From Hydrotalea sp. (lineage in GTDB: Bacteria; Bacteroidota; Bacteroidia; Chitinophagales; Chitinophagaceae): a stretch of DNA of 64,000 nucleotides. The number at the start of each line of letters is the position of its first letter. Within the stretch, counting starts at the first letter, position 1. Below, one piece after another: positions 8,400 through 23,942 of this stretch. The notes under the pieces are model-generated. The model was not told where the DNA came from, did not search any database, and saw nothing but the letters and a program-made list of their open reading frames with translations. The stretch spans positions 1 to 64,000 of the forward strand of contig JAKRSC010000008.1 in the NCBI GenBank assembly GCA_022402565.1. The letters run 5' to 3'. The position numbers and the translations under genes were made by a program.

Positions 8400-10097
8400 A
8401 TGAAGAAGACCGTTCTTGTGATGCTTGCAGCATGTATTTCAGTTTACAGTGTTACCGCACAAACAATAGCTGATGGCATTAAGTATTTGAATTACGAAAA
8501 GAACAAAAGTGCGTTGGATGCATTTCGGAAATTGCATGATAAGAGCCCTAAAGATGGCCAAACTACCTATTGGCTAGGACAGGCTATGCTTGCCAATGAT
8601 GATGTAAAAGGCGCAAAAGAATTGTACCAAAAAGCTCTACAAGAAAATGGATCTGATCCATGGGTTGTAGTTGGTATGGGGCATATTGATATTTTAGAAG
8701 GTCGCGATATAAACGAGGCAAAACAAAAGTTTGAGCAAGCGATAACTGCATCTACCAAAGAAGGCAAGAAAAAGGCAAAAATTGAAGATGCTGGTATATT
8801 AAATGCAATTGGAAGGGCTAACAGTGTAAGTTTACAAGGCAATAGCAAAATTGGTGACCCATTGTATGGAATTGAAAAGCTAAAGCGTGCTGCTGAGCTT
8901 GATTTAACGAATCCTGATATTTTCATCAATATGGGGGTTTGTTATTTAAAAATGGGTGGTGAATATGGAGGTGAAGCCGTAAAATCTTTCCAAGAAGCCA
9001 TTAGTCGCGATCCTAAGAACGCAAAAGCTAACTATCGTATTGGTAGAATTTATTATAGCCAGCAGAATAAGGACTTGTATGATACTTGGTTTGGTAATGC
9101 AATTTTAGCAGATGAAACATTTCCTCCTGTATACTTTACTTATTATGATTATTATTCAACCAAGAATGTGAATGTTGCAAAAGAGTATTTGGACAAGTTC
9201 ATTATGTATGCAGATAAAGATTGTGCAACCGATTATTTCTACGGCGATTATTTATTCCGTGCTGGTAAATACCAAGAATCATTACAAAAAGCAAATGAAA
9301 TGCAGGGAGGCGCATGTGCTTCTTATTATGGAACTCCATTGTTGTTTGCTTACAACAATGATCGCTTAGGAGATTCATTAACTGCAAAAGGATATTTGGA
9401 AAAATTCTTTGCAAATGCGCCTGAAAGTAAAGTTCAGCCTCAACACTTTGAATTTGCAGCTAATTTATTTGCTAAGTTCCCTGGAAGTGAGATGCAAGCA
9501 ATGACTTACATCGAAAAAGCAATTGAGTTTGATACTTTAAAAGCTAATAAGATTAATTATATGAATAAGGCTGCTGATATTTTTGGTAAGGCTAAAAAGT
9601 ATGATTTACAGTTGGGCTGGTTTAAGAAAGTAGTTGAAATTCAGGGGCAAACAACAGAATATGACTATTACAGAATGTCATTAGCAGCTTATAATGCAAA
9701 ATTATATGAAGAAACCATGAATATAGCTAAGGGGTATATTGAGGCACATCCTGATAAGCCAAATGGCTATGTTTTTAATGTGCGAGCTGCTAAAATGGTA
9801 GATACTGCTAATGCAACTGGGGTATATTTCAATGCTGTTAGTCTATACAATGATTTTTTGATTAAAGATCCAGAAAAAAATAAGCAGACCTTAGTAAATA
9901 ACTTTTATATCATGCTAGGGTACTACAACGACGCGCTTCAGGATTATGCAAAGGCGTTGGAAGTATGTGATAAAATTCTTCAATTAATTCCTGACGAGCC
10001 ACAAACAGTTAGAATTAGAGGAATTATTGAAAAGAATATGCAGAAAAAAAATGGGACTCAACCAGCTTCAAAATCAAGCGGAACTACACCTAAGTAA
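8400..10097 (+). CDS. Secreted tetratricopeptide-repeat protein
   Basis: Periplasmic or surface TPR solenoid of 565 residues. The ATG at 8400 gives a clean signal peptide (MKKTVLVMLAACISVYSVTAQ); an in-frame ATG at 8364, directly after the PstS-like stop, would add 12 polar residues. The mature protein is almost entirely TPR-like helix pairs, for example SPKDGQTTYWLGQAMLANDD, NPDIFINMGVCYLKMGGEYG and NAKANYRIGRIYYSQQNKD. There is no catalytic domain, so it is a likely scaffold. It is the last gene of a three-gene operon, and a strong terminator starts 48 bp after its stop. Confidence 0.85.
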   Translation: MKKTVLVMLAACISVYSVTAQTIADGIKYLNYEKNKSALDAFRKLHDKSPKDGQTTYWLGQAMLANDDVKGAKELYQKALQENGSDPWVVVGMGHIDILEGRDINEAKQKFEQAITASTKEGKKKAKIEDAGILNAIGRANSVSLQGNSKIGDPLYGIEKLKRAAELDLTNPDIFINMGVCYLKMGGEYGGEAVKSFQEAISRDPKNAKANYRIGRIYYSQQNKDLYDTWFGNAILADETFPPVYFTYYDYYSTKNVNVAKEYLDKFIMYADKDCATDYFYGDYLFRAGKYQESLQKANEMQGGACASYYGTPLLFAYNNDRLGDSLTAKGYLEKFFANAPESKVQPQHFEFAANLFAKFPGSEMQAMTYIEKAIEFDTLKANKINYMNKAADIFGKAKKYDLQLGWFKKVVEIQGQTTEYDYYRMSLAAYNAKLYEETMNIAKGYIEAHPDKPNGYVFNVRAAKMVDTANATGVYFNAVSLYNDFLIKDPEKNKQTLVNNFYIMLGYYNDALQDYAKALEVCDKILQLIPDEPQTVRIRGIIEKNMQKKNGTQPASKSSGTTPK

Positions 10098-10144
10098 GAT
10101 TTCCTTATCACATTTGTGAATAAAAGGTCTAAATTTTAACCTTT

Positions 10145-10173
10145 AAACAACTCCCCGTTTTGGGGAGTTGTTT
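10145..10173 (+). terminator. Strong hairpin terminator between the TPR gene and nuoA
   Basis: A perfect 12-bp inverted repeat (10145-10156 with 10162-10173) has a 5-nt loop, and the right arm ends in T residues. The stem is also U-rich in reverse, but no convergent gene uses it. It isolates the nuo operon from upstream transcription. Confidence 0.85.
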
Positions 10174-10193
10174 ATTTATATGCTCTGCAAGCT

Positions 10194-10201
10194 TATTTTT
10201 G
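10194..10201 (+). promoter_or_regulatory. Likely -7 promoter box of the nuo operon
   Basis: TATTTTTG matches TAnnTTTG and lies 17 nt before the ATG at 10219, directly after the terminator. A TTG inside the terminator arm (10168-10170) is 23 nt upstream, at the long end of allowed spacing, so the -33 element is weak. Confidence 0.45.
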
Positions 10202-10218
10202 CGACTCAAATTGACCGT

Positions 10219-10623
10219 ATGCTTTGGACAAACTTCCTGATGAACGTGAGTACAGCATCTAATACAGCTGTTGACTATTTCCCAATTGGTATTCAGTTAA
10301 TTTTTGCAGTAGGCTTTGTGGCTACTATGATTGGGGTATCGGCCCTTATTGGTCCAAAGCGTCAAACTTCAGATAAATTACAAAGCTTTGAGAGTGGTAT
10401 TGAGAGCGTGGGAAATGCCCGTCAGCCCATGGCAATTAAGTATTTCCTAGTTGCTATTCTATTTGTATTATTTGATGTTGAAGTCATTTTTTTCTATCCG
10501 TATGCCATTAATTTTAGGGATTTAGGATGGAATGGTTTTTTTGCTGTTTTAATGTTCGTAAGCCTGTTTTTAGCAGGGTTTATTTATATCATTAAAAAGG
10601 GAGCCCTTAAGTGGGAAGATTAA
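10219..10623 (+). CDS. nuoA: NADH-quinone oxidoreductase subunit A
   Basis: Membrane subunit of complex I, 134 residues from the ATG at 10219 (a second ATG at 10240 is possible; upstream in-frame codons overlap the terminator). Three hydrophobic helices are visible, with the conserved KLQSFESGIE loop and the FDVEVIFFYP motif, whose acidic residues line the quinone/proton junction. It is the first gene of a 14-subunit nuo operon running to 23942. No ribosome-binding site stands out, as is usual in this phylum. Confidence 0.95.
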   Translation: MLWTNFLMNVSTASNTAVDYFPIGIQLIFAVGFVATMIGVSALIGPKRQTSDKLQSFESGIESVGNARQPMAIKYFLVAILFVLFDVEVIFFYPYAINFRDLGWNGFFAVLMFVSLFLAGFIYIIKKGALKWED

Positions 10624-10684
10624 CAACCTTTTATATGGTAGGCTGTTGTAAGGTTTGAACTTCAATTAATTAAAAAAATTACAC

Positions 10685-11272
10685 ATGCGTCCGGTACGTT
10701 TTAACATTAACCCAATCCAAGCCAATACAAAAGACTCATTGGCAATGGTTGAAGCCCCAGAAGGATATTCGGGAGAAGGCTTTTTTGCAACAAAACTGAG
10801 TGATGTAGTAGGTTTAGCTAGAAAGAATTCACTTTGGCCGCTGCCTTTCGCTACTTCATGCTGTGGAATTGAGTTTATGGCAACTATGGCTAGTCACTAC
10901 GATTTGGCTCGATTTGGAAGTGAAAGAGTAGGATTTTCTCCTCGCCAGTGCGACTTGCTAATGGTTATGGGAACAATTGCTAAGAAAATGGCACCCGTTC
11001 TTCGTCAGGTTTACCTGCAAATGGCAGAACCAAGATGGGTAATAGCTGTAGGGGCTTGTGCTTCTTCGGGAGGTATTTTTGACACGTACAGTGTTTTACA
11101 AGGAATTGATCAGGTAATACCTGTTGATGTGTATGTGCCAGGTTGCCCACCAAGGCCAGAAGCCATTTTAGATGGATTCATGAAAGTTCAAGATTTGGTA
11201 GGTCAAGAAAGCCTGCGTCGTAGAAATAGTGAGCAATACACCGCACTTCTGGAAACCTATGGAATTCAGTAA
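10685..11272 (+). CDS. nuoB: NADH-quinone oxidoreductase subunit B
   Basis: Peripheral-arm subunit of 195 residues that holds iron-sulfur cluster N2, the last electron donor to quinone. All four cluster ligands are present: the tandem C59-C60 in SCCGIEF, C125 in VGACASSGG, and C154 in VPGCPPRPE. The first 35 residues form a variable extension. It lies 61 bp after nuoA and 16 bp before nuoC. Confidence 0.97.
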   Translation: MRPVRFNINPIQANTKDSLAMVEAPEGYSGEGFFATKLSDVVGLARKNSLWPLPFATSCCGIEFMATMASHYDLARFGSERVGFSPRQCDLLMVMGTIAKKMAPVLRQVYLQMAEPRWVIAVGACASSGGIFDTYSVLQGIDQVIPVDVYVPGCPPRPEAILDGFMKVQDLVGQESLRRRNSEQYTALLETYGIQ

Positions 11273-11288
11273 GTAAATAAAAATTGAT

Positions 11289-11807
11289 ATGGCATTAACA
11301 TACGAACACATACAATCGGCTCTAGTAAATAAATTTGGTGAGGCAATTACAAACTGGCAAATAGGCGTTGATATGGCAAGTTTTGAAGCGCCTAAGGAAG
11401 CCAATTTAAAGGTCTTACAGTTTCTATACGAAGAGTCAAGTTTAGGATTTCAATTTTTAACAGATATAACCGCAGTTCATTATCCAGATCAGTTGGGTAA
11501 GGAACTTGCTGTGGTTTATCATTTGCATAATCTTGTAGAAAATGTGCGTCTTCGCTTTAAAGTATTTACTTCAATAGAAGACCCTACCATTTTTACAGCA
11601 ACACAATTGTTTTCTAGTGCAAACTGGATGGAAAGAGAGACCTATGATTTCTTTGGAATTCAATTTGTAGGACATCCTAATCTAAAGAGGATTTTGAACG
11701 TAGACGAAATGGAATACTTCCCTTTACGAAAAGAATTTCCATTAGAAGACCAAACTAGGATTGACAAAGACGACGAAATGTTCGGTCGCGGCGGATCTAT
11801 CAGATAA
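11289..11807 (+). CDS. nuoC: NADH-quinone oxidoreductase subunit C (30 kDa)
   Basis: Connecting subunit of the hydrophilic arm, 172 residues. The family signature appears in the C-terminal third: WMERETYDFFGIQFVGHP, then LKRIL and PLRKEFPLED. NuoC is separate from NuoD here, unlike the fused NuoCD of E. coli. It sits between nuoB and nuoD with gaps of 16 and 21 bp. Confidence 0.95.
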   Translation: MALTYEHIQSALVNKFGEAITNWQIGVDMASFEAPKEANLKVLQFLYEESSLGFQFLTDITAVHYPDQLGKELAVVYHLHNLVENVRLRFKVFTSIEDPTIFTATQLFSSANWMERETYDFFGIQFVGHPNLKRILNVDEMEYFPLRKEFPLEDQTRIDKDDEMFGRGGSIR

Positions 11808-11828
11808 TGTTATTTAAAGACTTTAACA

Positions 11829-13055
11829 ATGAACGATCACAAACATATTATTCTAGAGGAAGGTAACATTCAAAAGCAAACTACCACCCTTAATCTTGGG
11901 CCTACACACCCGGCAACACATGGTGTGTTCCAAAATATTGTTGAATTAGATGGAGAAAGGGTAGTGAAAGCAGAACAAACTGTTGGCTATATTCATCGTG
12001 CTTTTGAAAAACTTGCTGAGCGCCGTCCTTTATATCAGGTAACGCCCATTACAGATCGTTTAAATTATTGTAGTAGTCCAATTAATAATATTGGCTGGCA
12101 TTTAACTTGCGAGAAGCTGTTAGGTGTTAAAACGCCTAAGAGGGTTGATTATTTGCGCGTTATTGTAATGGAACTAGCCCGCATTGCCGATCACTTAATT
12201 TGTAATTCAATTGTAGGTGTAGATACGGGAGCTTTTACAGGATTTTTATACGTATTCCAATACAGGGAGTTGATTTATGAAATTTATGAAGAAATCTGTG
12301 GAAGCAGATTGACAACTAATATTGGAAGAATTGGTGGTTTTGAAAGAGATTTTACTCCTGCTGCTTTCGAAAAGATTGAGAAGTTTCTAAAAGAATACCC
12401 TGCTGTTTTAAAAGAATTTGAAGATCTGTTTAACCGTAATAGAATTTTCATGGAGCGTACGCAGGGTACAGGAGGCATTAGTGCTGAAAGAGCCTTGAAC
12501 TATGGATTCACAGGTCCAAATTTACGTGCTGCTGGTGTTGACTATGATGTACGTGTACACAATCCTTATTGCAGTTATGAAGATTTCGACTTCGAAGTGC
12601 CGGTAGGGAGTACAGGAGATAATTATGATCGTTTCTTGGTTAGAAATGGAGAAATGTGGCAGAGTCTTTCAATTATCAAGCAAGCGATGCAAAAATTAGA
12701 GCAGTTTAAAGGAACAGATGCAGATGTATATCATGCAGATGTCCCAGAATATTACCTTCCTGAGAAGAAAGACGTTTACACCAAGATGGAAGCGCTCATT
12801 TGGCATTTCAAAATAATCATGGGAGAAATTGATATGCCTAAAGGAGAAGTTTATTTTTCAGTGGAGGGTGGTAATGGAGAACTAGGCTATTACTTGATTA
12901 GTGATGGCGGCAGAACTCCATATAGATTGCATTTTAGAAGACCATGCTTTATTTATTATCAGGCATTTGAAGAAATAGTAAAAGGTTCTATGTTGAGTGA
13001 TACAATTGTTACACTCAGTAGCTTGAATTTGATAGCTGGTGAAATGGATGCATAA
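11829..13055 (+). CDS. nuoD: NADH-quinone oxidoreductase subunit D (49 kDa)
   Basis: Quinone-site subunit of 408 residues, homologous to the large subunit of NiFe hydrogenases. The early block NLGPTHPATHG and the helix ending GYIHRAFEKLAERR are intact; the C-terminal EGGNGELGYYLISDGG...PYRLHFRRPCF block supplies the substrate-cavity residues. The nickel-binding cysteines of hydrogenases are absent, as expected for complex I. It ends 34 bp before the chosen nuoE start. Confidence 0.97.
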   Translation: MNDHKHIILEEGNIQKQTTTLNLGPTHPATHGVFQNIVELDGERVVKAEQTVGYIHRAFEKLAERRPLYQVTPITDRLNYCSSPINNIGWHLTCEKLLGVKTPKRVDYLRVIVMELARIADHLICNSIVGVDTGAFTGFLYVFQYRELIYEIYEEICGSRLTTNIGRIGGFERDFTPAAFEKIEKFLKEYPAVLKEFEDLFNRNRIFMERTQGTGGISAERALNYGFTGPNLRAAGVDYDVRVHNPYCSYEDFDFEVPVGSTGDNYDRFLVRNGEMWQSLSIIKQAMQKLEQFKGTDADVYHADVPEYYLPEKKDVYTKMEALIWHFKIIMGEIDMPKGEVYFSVEGGNGELGYYLISDGGRTPYRLHFRRPCFIYYQAFEEIVKGSMLSDTIVTLSSLNLIAGEMDA

Positions 13056-13089
13056 TAACTTTGAAAGAAATTATATTATAAATCGAATT

Positions 13090-13590
13090 ATGGCACAATT
13101 CAATGAGGCGCAAATGGCTGAGTTTAAGAGGCTCGTAGCACGTTATCCCGAGGGAAAACATAAGAGTGCTTTATTGCCAGTTTTACATTTAGCGCAAGAT
13201 AGCTTTGGAGGTTGGTTAAGTTCTGAAACAATGGATTATGTGGCAGAGTTACTCCAAATTAAACCAATTGAAGTGTATGAGGTAGCTACTTTTTACACGA
13301 TGTACAATTTAAAACCAGTTGGAAAATATTTATTCGAAGTTTGTCAAACTGGTCCTTGTATGCTGAATGGCAGTGACGATGTGGTAGAGCATATTTTTAA
13401 CACCTTAGGTATTCGTCCTGGTGAAACTACAAGCGATGGTATGTTTACTTTAAAGGTTGTAGAATGTTTGGGGGCTTGTGGTTATGCACCTATGATGCAA
13501 CTAGGTAAAACCTATAGAGAGCACTTAACTAAACAGAAGGTGGATGAAATTATTGCAGAGTGCAGAAAGAATGCAGCAGTAAATAATTAA
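13090..13590 (+). CDS. nuoE: NADH-quinone oxidoreductase subunit E (24 kDa)
   Basis: Thioredoxin-like subunit of 166 residues carrying the 2Fe-2S cluster N1a of the NADH-dehydrogenase module. Ligands are C85 and C90 (CQTGPC) and C126 and C130 (CLGAC). The ATG at 13090 is preferred; an upstream in-frame ATG at 13039 would overlap nuoD and add unconserved residues. It is followed after only 7 bp by an unrelated secreted gene rather than by nuoF. Confidence 0.96.
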   Translation: MAQFNEAQMAEFKRLVARYPEGKHKSALLPVLHLAQDSFGGWLSSETMDYVAELLQIKPIEVYEVATFYTMYNLKPVGKYLFEVCQTGPCMLNGSDDVVEHIFNTLGIRPGETTSDGMFTLKVVECLGACGYAPMMQLGKTYREHLTKQKVDEIIAECRKNAAVNN

Positions 13591-13597
13591 CTATAAA

Positions 13598-14053
13598 ATG
13601 ATTCAACAAACTATCATATTCCCATCATTGATTAGGAAGCCAATTTGTTTGCTTCTTATTATGATGTTTGTTGGTCAAACTGCCTTCAGTCAAGATACTC
13701 TACAATTACGTAAGCAGATCAATCAGTTGCATTCAGCTCTTGTAAATAAGGATGTTAATGAACTTCAATTATTGCTTCATCCTAGTTTGAGTTATGGGCA
13801 CAGTAATGGTTGGGTTCAAAATATAAACGATATGAGTGCCGATTTGCTTTCAGGTAAAATTGTTTATAAAAAATTGGAAGCAACACCTGGGCAGATTAGT
13901 GTACAAAAAAATATTGCACAGGTTCGATGTGAAAATGATGTAGAGGGGGTAGTTAATGGGAATAATTTTTCCATGAAGCTGCATGTATTGCAGGTGTGGG
14001 TTTGGGAAGATAATAAGTGGACAATTATTGCCAGGCAGAGTACAAAATTGTAA
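13598..14053 (+). CDS. Secreted NTF2/SnoaL-like protein embedded in the nuo operon
   Basis: Protein of 151 residues with an N-terminal export signal (hydrophobic LLLIMMFVGQTAF, cleavage likely after FSQ near residue 32). The mature part is a small cone-like alpha/beta domain of the NTF2/DUF4440 type: an amphipathic helix (LRKQINQLHSALVNKDVNEL), the HPSLSYGHSNG segment, and strands ending VWVWEDNKWTIIARQSTK. It is not a complex I subunit in any organism known to me. It sits 7 bp after nuoE and 23 bp before nuoF in the same orientation, so it is co-transcribed. The role is unknown; a periplasmic ligand-binding or assembly function is speculation. Confidence 0.8.
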   Translation: MIQQTIIFPSLIRKPICLLLIMMFVGQTAFSQDTLQLRKQINQLHSALVNKDVNELQLLLHPSLSYGHSNGWVQNINDMSADLLSGKIVYKKLEATPGQISVQKNIAQVRCENDVEGVVNGNNFSMKLHVLQVWVWEDNKWTIIARQSTKL

Positions 14054-14076
14054 AAAAGCCAAAAGCTTAAGATAAC

Positions 14077-15432
14077 ATGAGAAGAAAATTATTATTAGAA
14101 AAAGCTCACGTACCAGGTATTAGAACCTATGAGGTATACCGCAAAGAGGGCGGATATAGGAGTGTAGAAAAAGCACTTAAGTCTATGTCTCCCGATGAAG
14201 TGGTAGAAGAGGTGAAGAAGAGCGGATTGAGAGGAAGAGGTGGAGCGGGATTCCCAACGGGCATGAAGTGGAGTTTTCTTGCAAAGCCTGAAGGTGTGCC
14301 TCGTTATTTGGTTTGCAATGCAGATGAGAGTGAGCCTGGTACTTTTAAAGACAGATATCTCATGGAATTCATTCCGCACTTACTAATTGAAGGAATGATT
14401 ACATCATCTTACGCTTTAGGTGCAAATACTTCTTACATCTATATAAGAGGGGAGTATGCTTGGATTACGGATATATTAGAGCAAGCTATTGAAGAAGCCA
14501 AACACAATGGTTGGTTAGGAAACAACATATTAGGTACTGGATATTCATTGGATTTATATGTTCAGCGTGGTGCGGGAGCATATATATGTGGAGAAGAAAC
14601 AGCTTTATTAGAGAGTCTAGAAGGCAAGAGAGGGAACCCACGAATTAAACCTCCATTCCCTGCTGTAAAAGGCCTTTGGGATTGTCCAACCGTTGTAAAC
14701 AATGTTGAAACTATTGCAGCTGTTGTACCAATTGTAAATGATGGTGGAGAGGAGTATGCAAAAATTGGTGTAGGTAGATCAACAGGAACAAAATTGATTT
14801 CAGCTTGTGGAAATATCAATAAGCCTGGTGTGTACGAAATTGATATGACTATTAGTGTTGAGGAATTTATTTATAGCGATGAGTATTGTGGAGGAATTCC
14901 AAATGGTAAGCGACTAAAAGCTTGTATACCTGGAGGTTCTTCAGTTCCTATTCTACCTGCAAATTTGCTTTTAAAAACAGCGAAGGGTGAAACACGCATC
15001 ATGAATTATGAAAGTTTATCGGATGGTGGTTTTGCTACGGGTTCTATGATGGGAAGTGGTGGCTTTATTGTGCTAGATGAAGACCAATGTGTTGTGAAGC
15101 ATACTTATACTTTGGCTCGTTTCTATCGTCATGAAAGTTGCGGACAGTGTTCCCCATGTAGAGAAGGAACAGGCTGGATGGAAAAAATTCTTTTGCGCTT
15201 AGATCGTGGTCAAGGTAAAATGGAAGATATTGATTTGCTTTGGGACATTCAGCGTAAAATTGAAGGCAACACAATTTGTCCGCTAGGTGATGCGGCTGCA
15301 TGGCCAGTAGCTGCAGCTATTCGTCATTTTAGAGATGAATTTGAGTGGCATGTATTGCATCCAGAAGAGGCACAAAAAAGAAATTATGGATTAGCGCATT
15401 ATGCAGATCCAATTCATGTACCAGTTGCATAA
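14077..15432 (+). CDS. nuoF: NADH-quinone oxidoreductase subunit F (51 kDa, NADH-binding)
   Basis: Entry point for electrons: binds NADH and FMN and holds 4Fe-4S cluster N3. In 451 residues it shows the glycine-rich nucleotide site GLRGRGGAGFPTG (about 50-62), the FMN region with CNADESEPGTFKDR, and cluster ligands C355, C358 and C361 (CGQCSPC) plus C401 (TICPLGD). Length and order are typical. It resumes the nuo operon after the NTF2-like insertion. Confidence 0.97.
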   Translation: MRRKLLLEKAHVPGIRTYEVYRKEGGYRSVEKALKSMSPDEVVEEVKKSGLRGRGGAGFPTGMKWSFLAKPEGVPRYLVCNADESEPGTFKDRYLMEFIPHLLIEGMITSSYALGANTSYIYIRGEYAWITDILEQAIEEAKHNGWLGNNILGTGYSLDLYVQRGAGAYICGEETALLESLEGKRGNPRIKPPFPAVKGLWDCPTVVNNVETIAAVVPIVNDGGEEYAKIGVGRSTGTKLISACGNINKPGVYEIDMTISVEEFIYSDEYCGGIPNGKRLKACIPGGSSVPILPANLLLKTAKGETRIMNYESLSDGGFATGSMMGSGGFIVLDEDQCVVKHTYTLARFYRHESCGQCSPCREGTGWMEKILLRLDRGQGKMEDIDLLWDIQRKIEGNTICPLGDAAAWPVAAAIRHFRDEFEWHVLHPEEAQKRNYGLAHYADPIHVPVA

Positions 15433-15477
15433 ATGCAAAAGGAAACAAATAACAAGAACCGGTTAATTTTTTGAAAT

Positions 15478-16572
15478 ATGTCTGAAAATCTGGTGAAAGT
15501 AACCATCGACAACATTACAGTGGAAGTTCCAATGGGAACAACCATATTGCAAGCTGCTCGAAAAGTTGGTGGAGAAGTTGCGCCACCTGCAATGTGTTAT
15601 TATAGCAAGCTAGAGGGTAGTGGTGGGAAATGCAGAACCTGCTTGGTTGAGGTAAGTAAAGGATCTGAAAAAGATCCTCGTCCTATGCCGAAGCTCGTTG
15701 CAAGCTGCAGAACTACTGTTATGGATGGAATGGAAGTAAAGAATATTACCAGTGAAAAAGTGTTGGATGCTAGAAAAGGTGTTGTAGAGTTCTTATTAAT
15801 CAACCATCCTTTAGATTGCCCAATTTGTGATCAAGCAGGTGAGTGTCATCTACAAGACTTAAGTTACGAACACGGAGCAGAGGGAACTCGTTATGAGTTT
15901 CAGCGCCGTACATTCAAGAAGCACGATTTAGGCGAATATATTCAGTTACACATGACACGCTGTATTTTGTGTTATCGTTGTGTGTATACAGCTGATCAAT
16001 TAACGAAAACTCGTGAGCACGGAGTTCTTGACAGAGGTGATCATGCTGAAATTGCAACTTTTATTGAAAAGAATTTAAAAAATGATTTTATTGGAAATGT
16101 AATTGATGTTTGTCCTGTTGGAGCATTAACCGATAAAACCTTCCGCTTTAAAAACAGGGTTTGGTTTACTAAACCTGTTAATGCACATCGCGATTGCGAT
16201 ACTTGTTGCGGTGAAGTACAGTTGTGGATGAGAGGAGATGAAGTGTTTAGAGTAACAGCAAGAAAAGATGAGTGGGGTGAAGTAAAAGACAGTTCTAAGG
16301 GAGGTACAGGTTGGATTTGCAATACTTGTAGATTTGATAAAAAGCAAGCAAGTGATTGGGTTGTAGAAGGACCTGCTGAGGTAAATCGTCACTCTGTGAT
16401 TTCACAAGGACATTATGAGAAACTGGTTGTTCCTCAAGAAACATTTGAAGCTGTCATGGATGGAAGAAGTCCTAAGTTGCTCATGGATATTCATTCGGTG
16501 AGCGAGGTGAATAAGCCAGAAAAATCGCTTTCACTATTAGATAGACCTGCACACTCAACTGATTTTGAATAG
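15478..16572 (+). CDS. nuoG: NADH-quinone oxidoreductase subunit G, short form
   Basis: Iron-sulfur subunit of the peripheral arm, only 364 residues against 700-900 for the long NuoG. Present clusters: 2Fe-2S N1b (C40, C52, C55, C77); His-ligated N5 (H110, C114, C117, C123); N6a (C162, C165, C168 with C212, whose partner cluster lies in NuoI); and a further cysteine set C240, C243, C244, C281 and C284 resembling N7. The protein ends soon after, with no molybdopterin-like domain. The stop is followed closely by nuoH and the C-terminus is unbroken, so this is the compact form seen in Bacteroidota, not a truncation in this strain. Confidence 0.93.
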   Translation: MSENLVKVTIDNITVEVPMGTTILQAARKVGGEVAPPAMCYYSKLEGSGGKCRTCLVEVSKGSEKDPRPMPKLVASCRTTVMDGMEVKNITSEKVLDARKGVVEFLLINHPLDCPICDQAGECHLQDLSYEHGAEGTRYEFQRRTFKKHDLGEYIQLHMTRCILCYRCVYTADQLTKTREHGVLDRGDHAEIATFIEKNLKNDFIGNVIDVCPVGALTDKTFRFKNRVWFTKPVNAHRDCDTCCGEVQLWMRGDEVFRVTARKDEWGEVKDSSKGGTGWICNTCRFDKKQASDWVVEGPAEVNRHSVISQGHYEKLVVPQETFEAVMDGRSPKLLMDIHSVSEVNKPEKSLSLLDRPAHSTDFE

Positions 16573-22553: not shown

Positions 22554-23942
22554 ATGAATGCAATTATAGTATCGGCTGTTTTTGGTGTTTTAATGATGTT
22601 TGCTAGCTTTCTAGTAAACAACAAAAATGTATATCGTTATTTGGCTATTATTGGCTTATCAGTGCTTTTGTTAGCAAATATTTTAGAGACATATGCTATA
22701 TGGTCAATTAAGTTTGACTCATTTCTTCAACTATCATTTGAGCGATTTGGCTTGTTCTTTAATTCAATTGCAATTGCCGCAACACTTTTTTATGTTCTAC
22801 TGAGCGGAAAAGATATAGTGCGAGTAGGAAACTATAGTGCCGAATATTTTGTGCTGATATTTTTTATTCTTTGTGGTGTGTCTTTAATAACATCTTATAA
22901 TAGTTTGTTGATGTTGTTTTTAGGAATCGAGATTATTTCAATTCCACTTTACATTCTAACGGGCTCAGACAAGAAAAATTTAAAGAGTAATGAAGCCGCA
23001 CTAAAATACTTTTTGATGGGTGCTTTTTCAACAGGACTCATGTTAATGGGAATTGCGCTTAGTTATGGTGCAGTTGGTAATTTTGGTTTAGAGGGAAGAG
23101 GTGTAGTTGCGTTTGGTGGAAGCATGCGTGTTTCATTTTTAGAAGTAGCGGGTTTATTATTACTTTTTATTTCGATGTCTTTTAAAGCATCTGCTGCTCC
23201 TTTTCATTTCTGGACTCCAGATGTATATGAAGGAGCTCCAAGTGTTTTCACATCATTCATGGCAACTATAGTAAAGGCAACTGTTTTTATTGGAATGATA
23301 AAGCTGCTTGAAGCACGCACAGGAATTTTTGGTCCAACCTGGCAAATTATTCTTCCATTGATGATTGTATTAACCTTAGCAATAGGAAATATTACAGCTG
23401 TATTTCAACAGAGTGTGAAGCGTATGCTAGCTTATTCAAGTATTGCACAAGCAGGTTTTATGCTTTTTGCATTGTGGAGCGCTAATGATATGGGAAGGGA
23501 GGGTATTCTTTTATATTCTGTTGCTTACACTCTTGCTACAGTAGGAATTTTTGCTGTTCTTGTAAAAATGAAAGATTACACTTTTGATGGATTTAATGGG
23601 TTGGCAGCAAAACAACCACTTGTTGCAGCATCAGTTGCTGTATTTGTTCTATCACTTGCTGGGATTCCATTGACAGCTGGCTTTTTTGCAAAATATTTCA
23701 TGTTAGCATCTGCTATTAAGAGTGGGGCAGGCGTTTGGCTATTGGTTGTAGCAGTTGTTTTTGCAGCCGTAAGTGTTTATTATTACTTTAGGCTCATTCA
23801 AGCTATGTATTTTAAAGAGGGTGAGGCAGAAATGTTTGAGCAACCCACCAACTCTTTCAAGGGAATGCTTGCAATATTTGCTGTTTTACTAATAGTGCTT
23901 GGTATTGCTCCTTCATTATTGTTCAATTACCTTTATTTTTAA
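22554..23942 (+). CDS. nuoN: NADH-quinone oxidoreductase subunit N (antiporter-like)
   Basis: Third antiporter-like subunit, 462 residues, ND2 family, and last gene of the nuo operon. LFLGIEIISIPLYILTG and KASAAPFHFWTPDVYEGAPSVFTSFMATIVKA carry the conserved Glu and Lys. There is no clear hairpin terminator in the 72 bp before the next plus-strand gene, so some read-through into the MacB-type permease is possible. Confidence 0.96.
   Translation: MNAIIVSAVFGVLMMFASFLVNNKNVYRYLAIIGLSVLLLANILETYAIWSIKFDSFLQLSFERFGLFFNSIAIAATLFYVLLSGKDIVRVGNYSAEYFVLIFFILCGVSLITSYNSLLMLFLGIEIISIPLYILTGSDKKNLKSNEAALKYFLMGAFSTGLMLMGIALSYGAVGNFGLEGRGVVAFGGSMRVSFLEVAGLLLLFISMSFKASAAPFHFWTPDVYEGAPSVFTSFMATIVKATVFIGMIKLLEARTGIFGPTWQIILPLMIVLTLAIGNITAVFQQSVKRMLAYSSIAQAGFMLFALWSANDMGREGILLYSVAYTLATVGIFAVLVKMKDYTFDGFNGLAAKQPLVAASVAVFVLSLAGIPLTAGFFAKYFMLASAIKSGAGVWLLVVAVVFAAVSVYYYFRLIQAMYFKEGEAEMFEQPTNSFKGMLAIFAVLLIVLGIAPSLLFNYLYF

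What the first reader, a model, noticed from the sequence alone, without database searches (positions are those of the whole stretch)
13598..14053. Secreted NTF2-like protein inside the complex I operon
Between nuoE and nuoF, which normally adjoin, lies a gene for an exported NTF2/DUF4440-like protein with only 7 and 23 bp gaps. Complex I has no known periplasmic subunit of this type and nuoE and nuoF act in the cytoplasm. It could be a neutral passenger, a periplasmic assembly aid, or a sensor co-expressed with respiration.
Basis: partly seen in the sequence, partly recalled or inferred. Interest (0 to 1): 0.55.

Follow-up and report, generated by a model that had tools for sequence, protein, structure and literature searches.

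The report
Exported protein gene inside respiratory operon
A gene for a small, probably exported protein sits between two genes of the respiratory complex I operon, and it is not a one-off insertion: the same gene lives at that exact spot in many genera of one bacterial family, although others, including this genome's closest relatives, do without it.

Summary
Confirmed: a 151-aa DUF4440 (NTF2-fold) gene with a signal-peptide-like start lies at 13598-14053, 7 bp after nuoE and 23 bp before nuoF, without repeat scar, terminator or visible promoter. It is not strain-specific. With one genome per genus of the window's family, the nuoE-nuoF gap is occupied (>=240 bp) in 47 of 72 measurable genera and holds DUF4440 in 28. 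In a separate scan 75 of 80 close homologues lie between nuoE and nuoF. A tree of 77 resident and 29 other copies needs 2 changes of residence (shuffled mean 25.5). Close pairs of residents give dN/dS 0.08-0.25. Both congeners held have an empty gap, so the gene is dispensable. Inserts of >=350 bp concentrate at the two junctions of the NADH module (E-F 33/49, F-G 24/50; other eleven junctions 10/527), and the two junctions carry different gene families. Best reading: a non-subunit periplasmic ligand-binding or converting protein, co-expressed with complex I, mostly inherited vertically and often lost. Export, co-transcription and ligand are inferred or unknown. An obligatory subunit role is unlikely.

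The parts
13598..14053 (+). gene for a 151-aa DUF4440 / NTF2-fold protein, lineage B2 of the nuo residents
13598..13690 (+). signal-peptide-like segment (residues 1-31, cleavage site inferred)
   Evidence: sequence; hydropathy rule
13706..14026 (+). DUF4440 domain
   Evidence: PF14534 match
13039..13590 (+). nuoE (likely start at the ATG at 13090)
14077..15432 (+). nuoF
15478..16572 (+). nuoG, short form; the nuoF-nuoG gap is empty in this window
10144..10174 (+). terminator-like hairpin between the upstream TPR gene and nuoA
10194..10201 (+). TATTTTTG, a match to the TAnnTTTG promoter element recalled for this phylum; none found in 13560-14100
   Evidence: 39 such sites on the + strand of the whole window, so weak

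Best explanation
The gene is a long-term resident of the nuoE-nuoF junction of this bacterial family (Chitinophagaceae, judging by the titles of many homologous records). It encodes a periplasmic NTF2-fold protein with conserved polar residues that probably binds or converts a small molecule, and it is made from the complex I transcript so that its level follows respiration. It is not a complex I subunit. Shown here: position, spread over the family, absence of the arrangement from other families sampled, purifying selection in relatives, predicted fold. Inferred: export, co-transcription, pocket function, ligand. The junction behaves as a slot: the gene is mostly inherited vertically, often lost cleanly, and sometimes replaced by other genes (NlpE-type lipoprotein, VOC, AHSA1, DNA alkylation repair), possibly by recombination through the conserved nuoE and nuoF flanks (inferred).
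For: Same position in 28 of 72 genera and in 75 of 80 loci of a separate scan. Residence changes twice in a tree of 106 copies against a shuffled mean of 25.5. Class-level homologues: 3 of 3 loci from the family beside nuo, 0 of 26 from other families. dN/dS 0.116 and 0.253 (lineages A and B of G012/G311), 0.108 (G131/G257), 0.075 (G257/G206), 0.139 (G131/G206). Lineage B2 tree near the nuoDEFG tree (delta logL 23 against 186-275 for shuffled tips; SH p 0.417). NTF2-fold model with pLDDT 91.6, best match 2r4i. Residue 90 is Tyr in 75 of 77 residents, Phe in 26 of 29 non-residents. Of 18 multi-gene E-F islands, 14 are informative about order and all 14 fit {A, NlpE or DNA alkylation} < {VOC or AHSA1} < B.
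Against: The AU test rejects the nuo topology for all three lineages (A: delta logL 263, also rejected by SH; B1: AU 0.002; B2: AU 0.008), so transfer or replacement has also occurred. Both congeners lack the gene, and presence on the nuo tree needs 22 changes. G007, with a split operon, breaks the cargo order. Among pairs at dS near 1, dN/dS reaches 0.31. No ligand, transcript or localisation data.
Confidence: 0.5

Rival explanations
1. Neutral or weakly useful passenger: the nuoE-nuoF junction tolerates inserts and gives steady expression, so small genes of no respiratory relevance settle there and come and go.
For: Presence is patchy (28 of 72 genera; 22 changes); congeners have an empty gap; the same gap holds unrelated families; the next junction, F-G, carries GxxExxY and 23S rRNA-intervening four-helix genes.
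Against: Purifying selection in the measured pairs; one clade tied to one site; own signature residue Y90; strict separation of E-F and F-G cargo.
Confidence: 0.3
2. A true accessory subunit or periplasmic assembly aid of complex I.
For: Co-residence with nuoE and nuoF over the family; SecDF_P1_head fusions in two loci hint at work near the export machinery.
Against: 44 of 72 genera with nuoE-nuoF lack it at the site; nuoE and nuoF products act in the cytoplasm (established knowledge); the slot is also filled by unrelated proteins.
Confidence: 0.1
3. A recent strain-specific insertion into the operon.
For: The two other genomes held of the genus have an empty gap; closest homologue is only 48% identical.
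Against: The best homologues sit at the same site in other genera; no repeats or mobile genes at the ends; base composition like nuoE. Regain from another genus is not excluded.
Confidence: 0.05

Closest known systems
DUF4440 / SnoaL-like NTF2 superfamily (PF14534); solved relatives 2r4i (Cytophaga hutchinsonii CHU_1428) and 3fsd (Rhodospirillum rubrum), both of unknown function
   Same: Profile score over the curated cut-off and the same predicted fold; weak but significant sequence match.
   Different: 2r4i and 3fsd lack the YGHS motif in the alignments shown; the nuo-resident clade has Tyr at position 90 and a fixed genomic site.
Extra non-core genes inside complex I operons of other bacteria (recalled: nhaD and pcd in Rhodothermus marinus, unassigned reading frames in Paracoccus)
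   Same: Extra gene embedded between nuo genes.
   Different: Different gene families and organisms. From memory only: searches did not list the primary papers, and the passages seen of PMC8115037 do not speak of such genes.
GxxExxY (TIGR04256) and 23S rRNA-intervening four-helix (TIGR02436) genes at nuoF-nuoG in the same bacterial family
   Same: Cargo between genes of the same operon module.
   Different: In this sample none was at E-F (0 of 27) and no DUF4440 at F-G (0 of 52).

Membership tests
DUF4440 (PF14534) | profile score above the curated cut-off over the full domain | tested here: met
   58.6 bits against 25.2, profile positions 1-107 of 107
NTF2-like fold | fold matching solved members | tested here: met
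   predicted model only: pLDDT 91.6, pTM 0.77; Foldseek 2r4i E 1.3e-9, TM normalised by target 0.90
Exported protein | cleavable signal peptide | tested here: inconclusive
   hydrophobic-core rule met by 52 of 52 residents, lipobox-like match in 1; the rule is not specific
Catalytic SnoaL / ketosteroid-isomerase-type enzyme | known catalytic residues and substrate | not testable with these tools
   H68, Y90 and R146 conserved, but no activity is known
Complex I subunit | present wherever complex I is present | tested here: not met
   44 of 72 genera lack DUF4440 at the site; some may hold a copy elsewhere, but the two congeners have only weak partial hits
Complex I subunit | co-purifies with the complex | not testable with these tools
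   needs an experiment
Mobile insertion element | terminal repeats, transposase, target duplication | tested here: not met
   no inverted repeats and no direct repeat at the gene ends in 13400-14300; the gap holds only this ORF

The most novel reading that the evidence does not exclude
The NADH module of complex I in this family is a two-slot cargo platform. Slot E-F keeps a distinct Tyr90 subfamily of periplasmic NTF2-fold proteins that handle a compound or stress specific to respiration, slot F-G takes selfish-looking genes, and cargo is exchanged between genera by recombination through the conserved nuoE, nuoF and nuoG flanks.
Probability: 0.15. Interest if true: 0.7.

Novelty: new variant of a known kind. 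Interest (0 to 1): 0.5.

Why it matters
It gives an uncharacterised protein family a firm genomic anchor, expression with complex I, so that its function becomes testable. It also shows that a well conserved bacterial operon has, in one family, two specific places where other genes live and turn over while eleven neighbouring junctions stay nearly closed. Why those two junctions are open is a concrete question about operon translation and assembly of the NADH module. No paper describing this appeared in the listings of the searches named in the report.

Tried and rejected
Rejected: strain-specific insertion; mobile element; known structured RNA at the site (no Rfam match at gathering threshold in 9900-15600); compositional island (G+C about 0.35 over the gene, like nuoE); obligatory complex I subunit. 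NCBIfam gave no family for the protein. Sequence search of solved structures gave two NTF2-like proteins of unknown function; the top hit 7ong and also 7onc came from designed repeat proteins with no stretch significant on its own, and were set aside.

Little use: paper searches (15 of 146 papers listed; 4 of 4; 1 of 1; 1 of 1; none; 3 of 3; 8 of 26; 8 of 24): listings and abstract starts seen. Passages seen of PMC3924330, PMC8115037, PMC9696053 (only a reference-list match). No paper was read whole.

Limits. The one-per-genus set (78 genera listed, 72 measured) joins family genomes with 20 further genera from the printed part, which lists nearer NuoF first, so it leans to nearer genera. Unmeasured: G007, G014, G034, G039, G040, G048. 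G016, whose EFG genes are divergent, is among the empty ones; G117 has a 379-bp gap without an ORF of 90 aa. The 20 genomes were chosen partly because they hold DUF4440 and are left out of the rates (22 measured in that second group with the two congeners, 14 with DUF4440); they are in the trees, islands and cluster counts. Non-resident rows of the gene tree were search hits away from nuo, so lower-scoring by choice. The trees are quick ones, the gene tree on 130 columns with few supported forks; it does not place the window gene in any starred set. Junction counts include the three genomes of the window's genus and G016; with a threshold of 250 bp instead of 350 the other eleven junctions rise from 10 to 18 of 527 (C-D 5, H-I 7). 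For one search I used 60 of the 71 rows (left out: 3 family rows, G438 with a partial hit, 7 weak rows). nuoE comparisons with G206 looked misaligned and were not used. Labels such as glycosyltransferase, polysaccharide deacetylase, GNAT and sugar catabolism are from inspection, not from a call.

Full report
Observation. The window holds a nuo operon from nuoA (ORF 10168-10623, true start uncertain) to nuoN (22554-23942). Between nuoE and nuoF lies a 151-aa ORF, 13598-14053, 7 and 23 nt from its neighbours. It is a DUF4440 protein (58.6 bits, cut-off 25.2) with a hydrophobic N-terminus ending in TAFSQ. The genome has one match to this protein and two DUF4440 domains over the Pfam cut-off in all. 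No inverted repeat, terminator-like site or TAnnTTTG motif was found around it (the sigma-70-type scan found no more sites than shuffles do). A terminator-like hairpin (10144-10174) and a TATTTTTG site (10194) lie before the likely nuoA start. This fits one transcript for the operon but does not prove it.

Distribution. A protein search of 99 relatives found homologues in 48, and NuoF matches at E 1e-60 in 83 of the 99. I fetched regions around nuoF and measured the junctions. With one genome per genus of the family, the E-F gap could be measured in 72 of 78 genera: 25 are empty (under 240 bp), 28 hold DUF4440, 10 a VOC protein, 7 an NlpE-type lipoprotein, and 2 each AHSA1, DNA alkylation repair, an aspartic protease and an unnamed family, 6 an unclustered ORF; some hold more than one (Pfam names for representatives). 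Of the 54 best-scoring loci of two searches, the window included, 45 lie beside nuoE or nuoF. A separate scan of GTDB r220 genomes with motifs from six sequences returned 80 loci (the best of 123): 75 have nuoE before and nuoF after the homologue, 2 have one of them at or near a contig end, and 3 have neither (L309, L312, L323). These genomes overlap in part with those behind the G handles. In the class, 198 genomes gave 29 loci: 3 have nuo genes within 1.5 kb, all three from the family; 0 of the other 26 do.

Junction control. In family genomes with whole operons, inserts of 350 bp or more occur at E-F in 33 of 49 and at F-G in 24 of 50, but at the other eleven junctions together in 10 of 527 (Fisher p 8.5e-33 and 5.4e-21, which ignore relatedness). 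With a threshold of 250 bp the other junctions give 18 of 527. In the other families of the order, 0 of 9 at E-F and 1 of 9 at F-G reach 250 bp. In the class outside the family, E-F inserts of 350 bp or more occur in 6 of 57, so the junction is mildly open there too. By blastp clusters the cargo is junction-specific: DUF4440 52 of 52, VOC 10 of 10 and NlpE 8 of 8 at E-F; GxxExxY 18 of 18 and the 23S rRNA-intervening four-helix family 9 of 9 at F-G (family names). Occupancy of the two junctions is not clearly linked (24 both, 19 E-F only, 7 F-G only, 16 neither; p 0.07).

Descent. On a nuoDEFG tree of 100 rows, presence of DUF4440 at E-F needs 22 changes (14 forced by starred branches; shuffled mean 30.6): widespread and patchy. 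In a tree of 106 DUF4440 copies, 77 resident and 29 elsewhere, the label changes twice (shuffled mean 25.5), and 27 of the 29 non-residents form one starred clade. Residents fall in lineages A and B (B1, B2) and a small pair C; several genomes carry A followed by B. Of 18 multi-gene E-F islands 14 tell something about order, and all 14 fit {A, NlpE or DNA alkylation} before {VOC or AHSA1} before B. G007, whose operon is split after this cargo, has B before AHSA1. Against strict vertical descent, AU rejects the nuo topology for A (delta logL 263), B1 (35) and B2 (23); SH rejects A but not B1 (0.137) or B2 (0.417); shuffled tips are far worse (364-545, 115-140 and 186-275). In the B2 likelihood tree, whose support was not computed, the window gene groups with the copies of G311, G012, G371 and G270, as its nuo genes do among the B2 carriers; the larger tree does not resolve its place. 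Both congeners held (G001, G002) have an empty 31-bp gap and only weak partial profile hits elsewhere (E 7e-4 and 3e-4). Loss there seems the simpler reading; regain here is not excluded.

Selection. Comparisons with dS under 0.6 give dN/dS 0.116 and 0.253 (lineages A and B of G012/G311), 0.108 (G131/G257), 0.139 (G131/G206) and 0.075 (G257/G206); the last three share genomes. nuoE gives 0.065 (G012/G311) and 0.052 (G131/G257), nuoF about 0.02. More distant pairs with finite dS reach 0.31. Residents are thus constrained, less than the subunits. The window gene has no relative close enough to measure.

Structure. AlphaFold2 on the window protein with 77 homologues gives pLDDT 91.6 and pTM 0.77. 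Foldseek ranks NTF2-like proteins of unknown function first, best 2r4i (TM 0.90 by target length), then 3fsd. H68, S69, R146 and Q147 are nearly invariant in residents and non-residents alike; residue 90 is Tyr in 75 of 77 residents and Phe in 26 of 29 non-residents, a possible sign of a different ligand. That these residues line one pocket is inferred; coordinates were not examined.

Interpretation. The most likely reading is a periplasmic protein that binds or converts a small molecule, expressed with complex I but not part of it (0.5). For it: spread, position, selection, own signature residue. Against a subunit: frequent absence and replacement by unrelated proteins. The passenger reading stays open at 0.3. 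Why E-F and F-G accept genes is unexplained; looser translational coupling inside the NADH module is a guess.

Literature. Passages of PMC3924330 describe secreted NTF2-like domains with proposed ligand-binding roles, and name DUF4440 once, as co-occurring with hydrolase domains. The listings of searches (15 of 146 papers seen) showed no paper on a gene between nuoE and nuoF in these bacteria; the library holds open-licence papers only. Extra genes in complex I operons elsewhere (Rhodothermus, Paracoccus) are recalled, not read.

Noticed in passing
nuoF-nuoG junction of L139, L141, L146, L147, L149, L156, L162, L163, L165, L166: A second cargo site in relatives holds GxxExxY and 23S rRNA-intervening four-helix genes, also glycosyltransferase-like genes and a 280-aa secreted-looking protein.
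   Followed up: partly
L063:3582-4424 and L091:3608-4492: DUF4440 fused behind a SecDF_P1_head domain at the nuoE-nuoF junction.
   Followed up: no
window 15478-16572: NuoG is only 364 aa, with the N-terminal Fe-S domains and no molybdopterin-type domain in the Pfam scan.
   Followed up: no
L136 and L067 (G007): The nuo operon is split just after nuoE-DUF4440-AHSA1; nuoF lies on another contig with an unrelated gene upstream.
   Followed up: partly
L300:4416-6139 and L212: Two further genes, deacetylase-like and acetyltransferase-like by inspection, sit between DUF4440 and nuoF.
   Followed up: no
L263, L271, L276, L279: Non-resident DUF4440 copies fall in one starred clade, and several sit beside what look like sugar-catabolism genes (labels by inspection).
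   Followed up: no
G408, G494, G472, G426, G463, G493: Six genomes of the class outside the family also have 418-1364 bp between nuoE and nuoF; the content was not read.
   Followed up: no
L282, L325: Records titled Azovibrio restrictus and Phycisphaerales carry the nuoE-DUF4440-nuoF arrangement, so these MAG titles are probably wrong.
   Followed up: no
window 10144-10201: Strong terminator-like hairpin and a TAnnTTTG match between the upstream TPR gene and nuoA.
   Followed up: no
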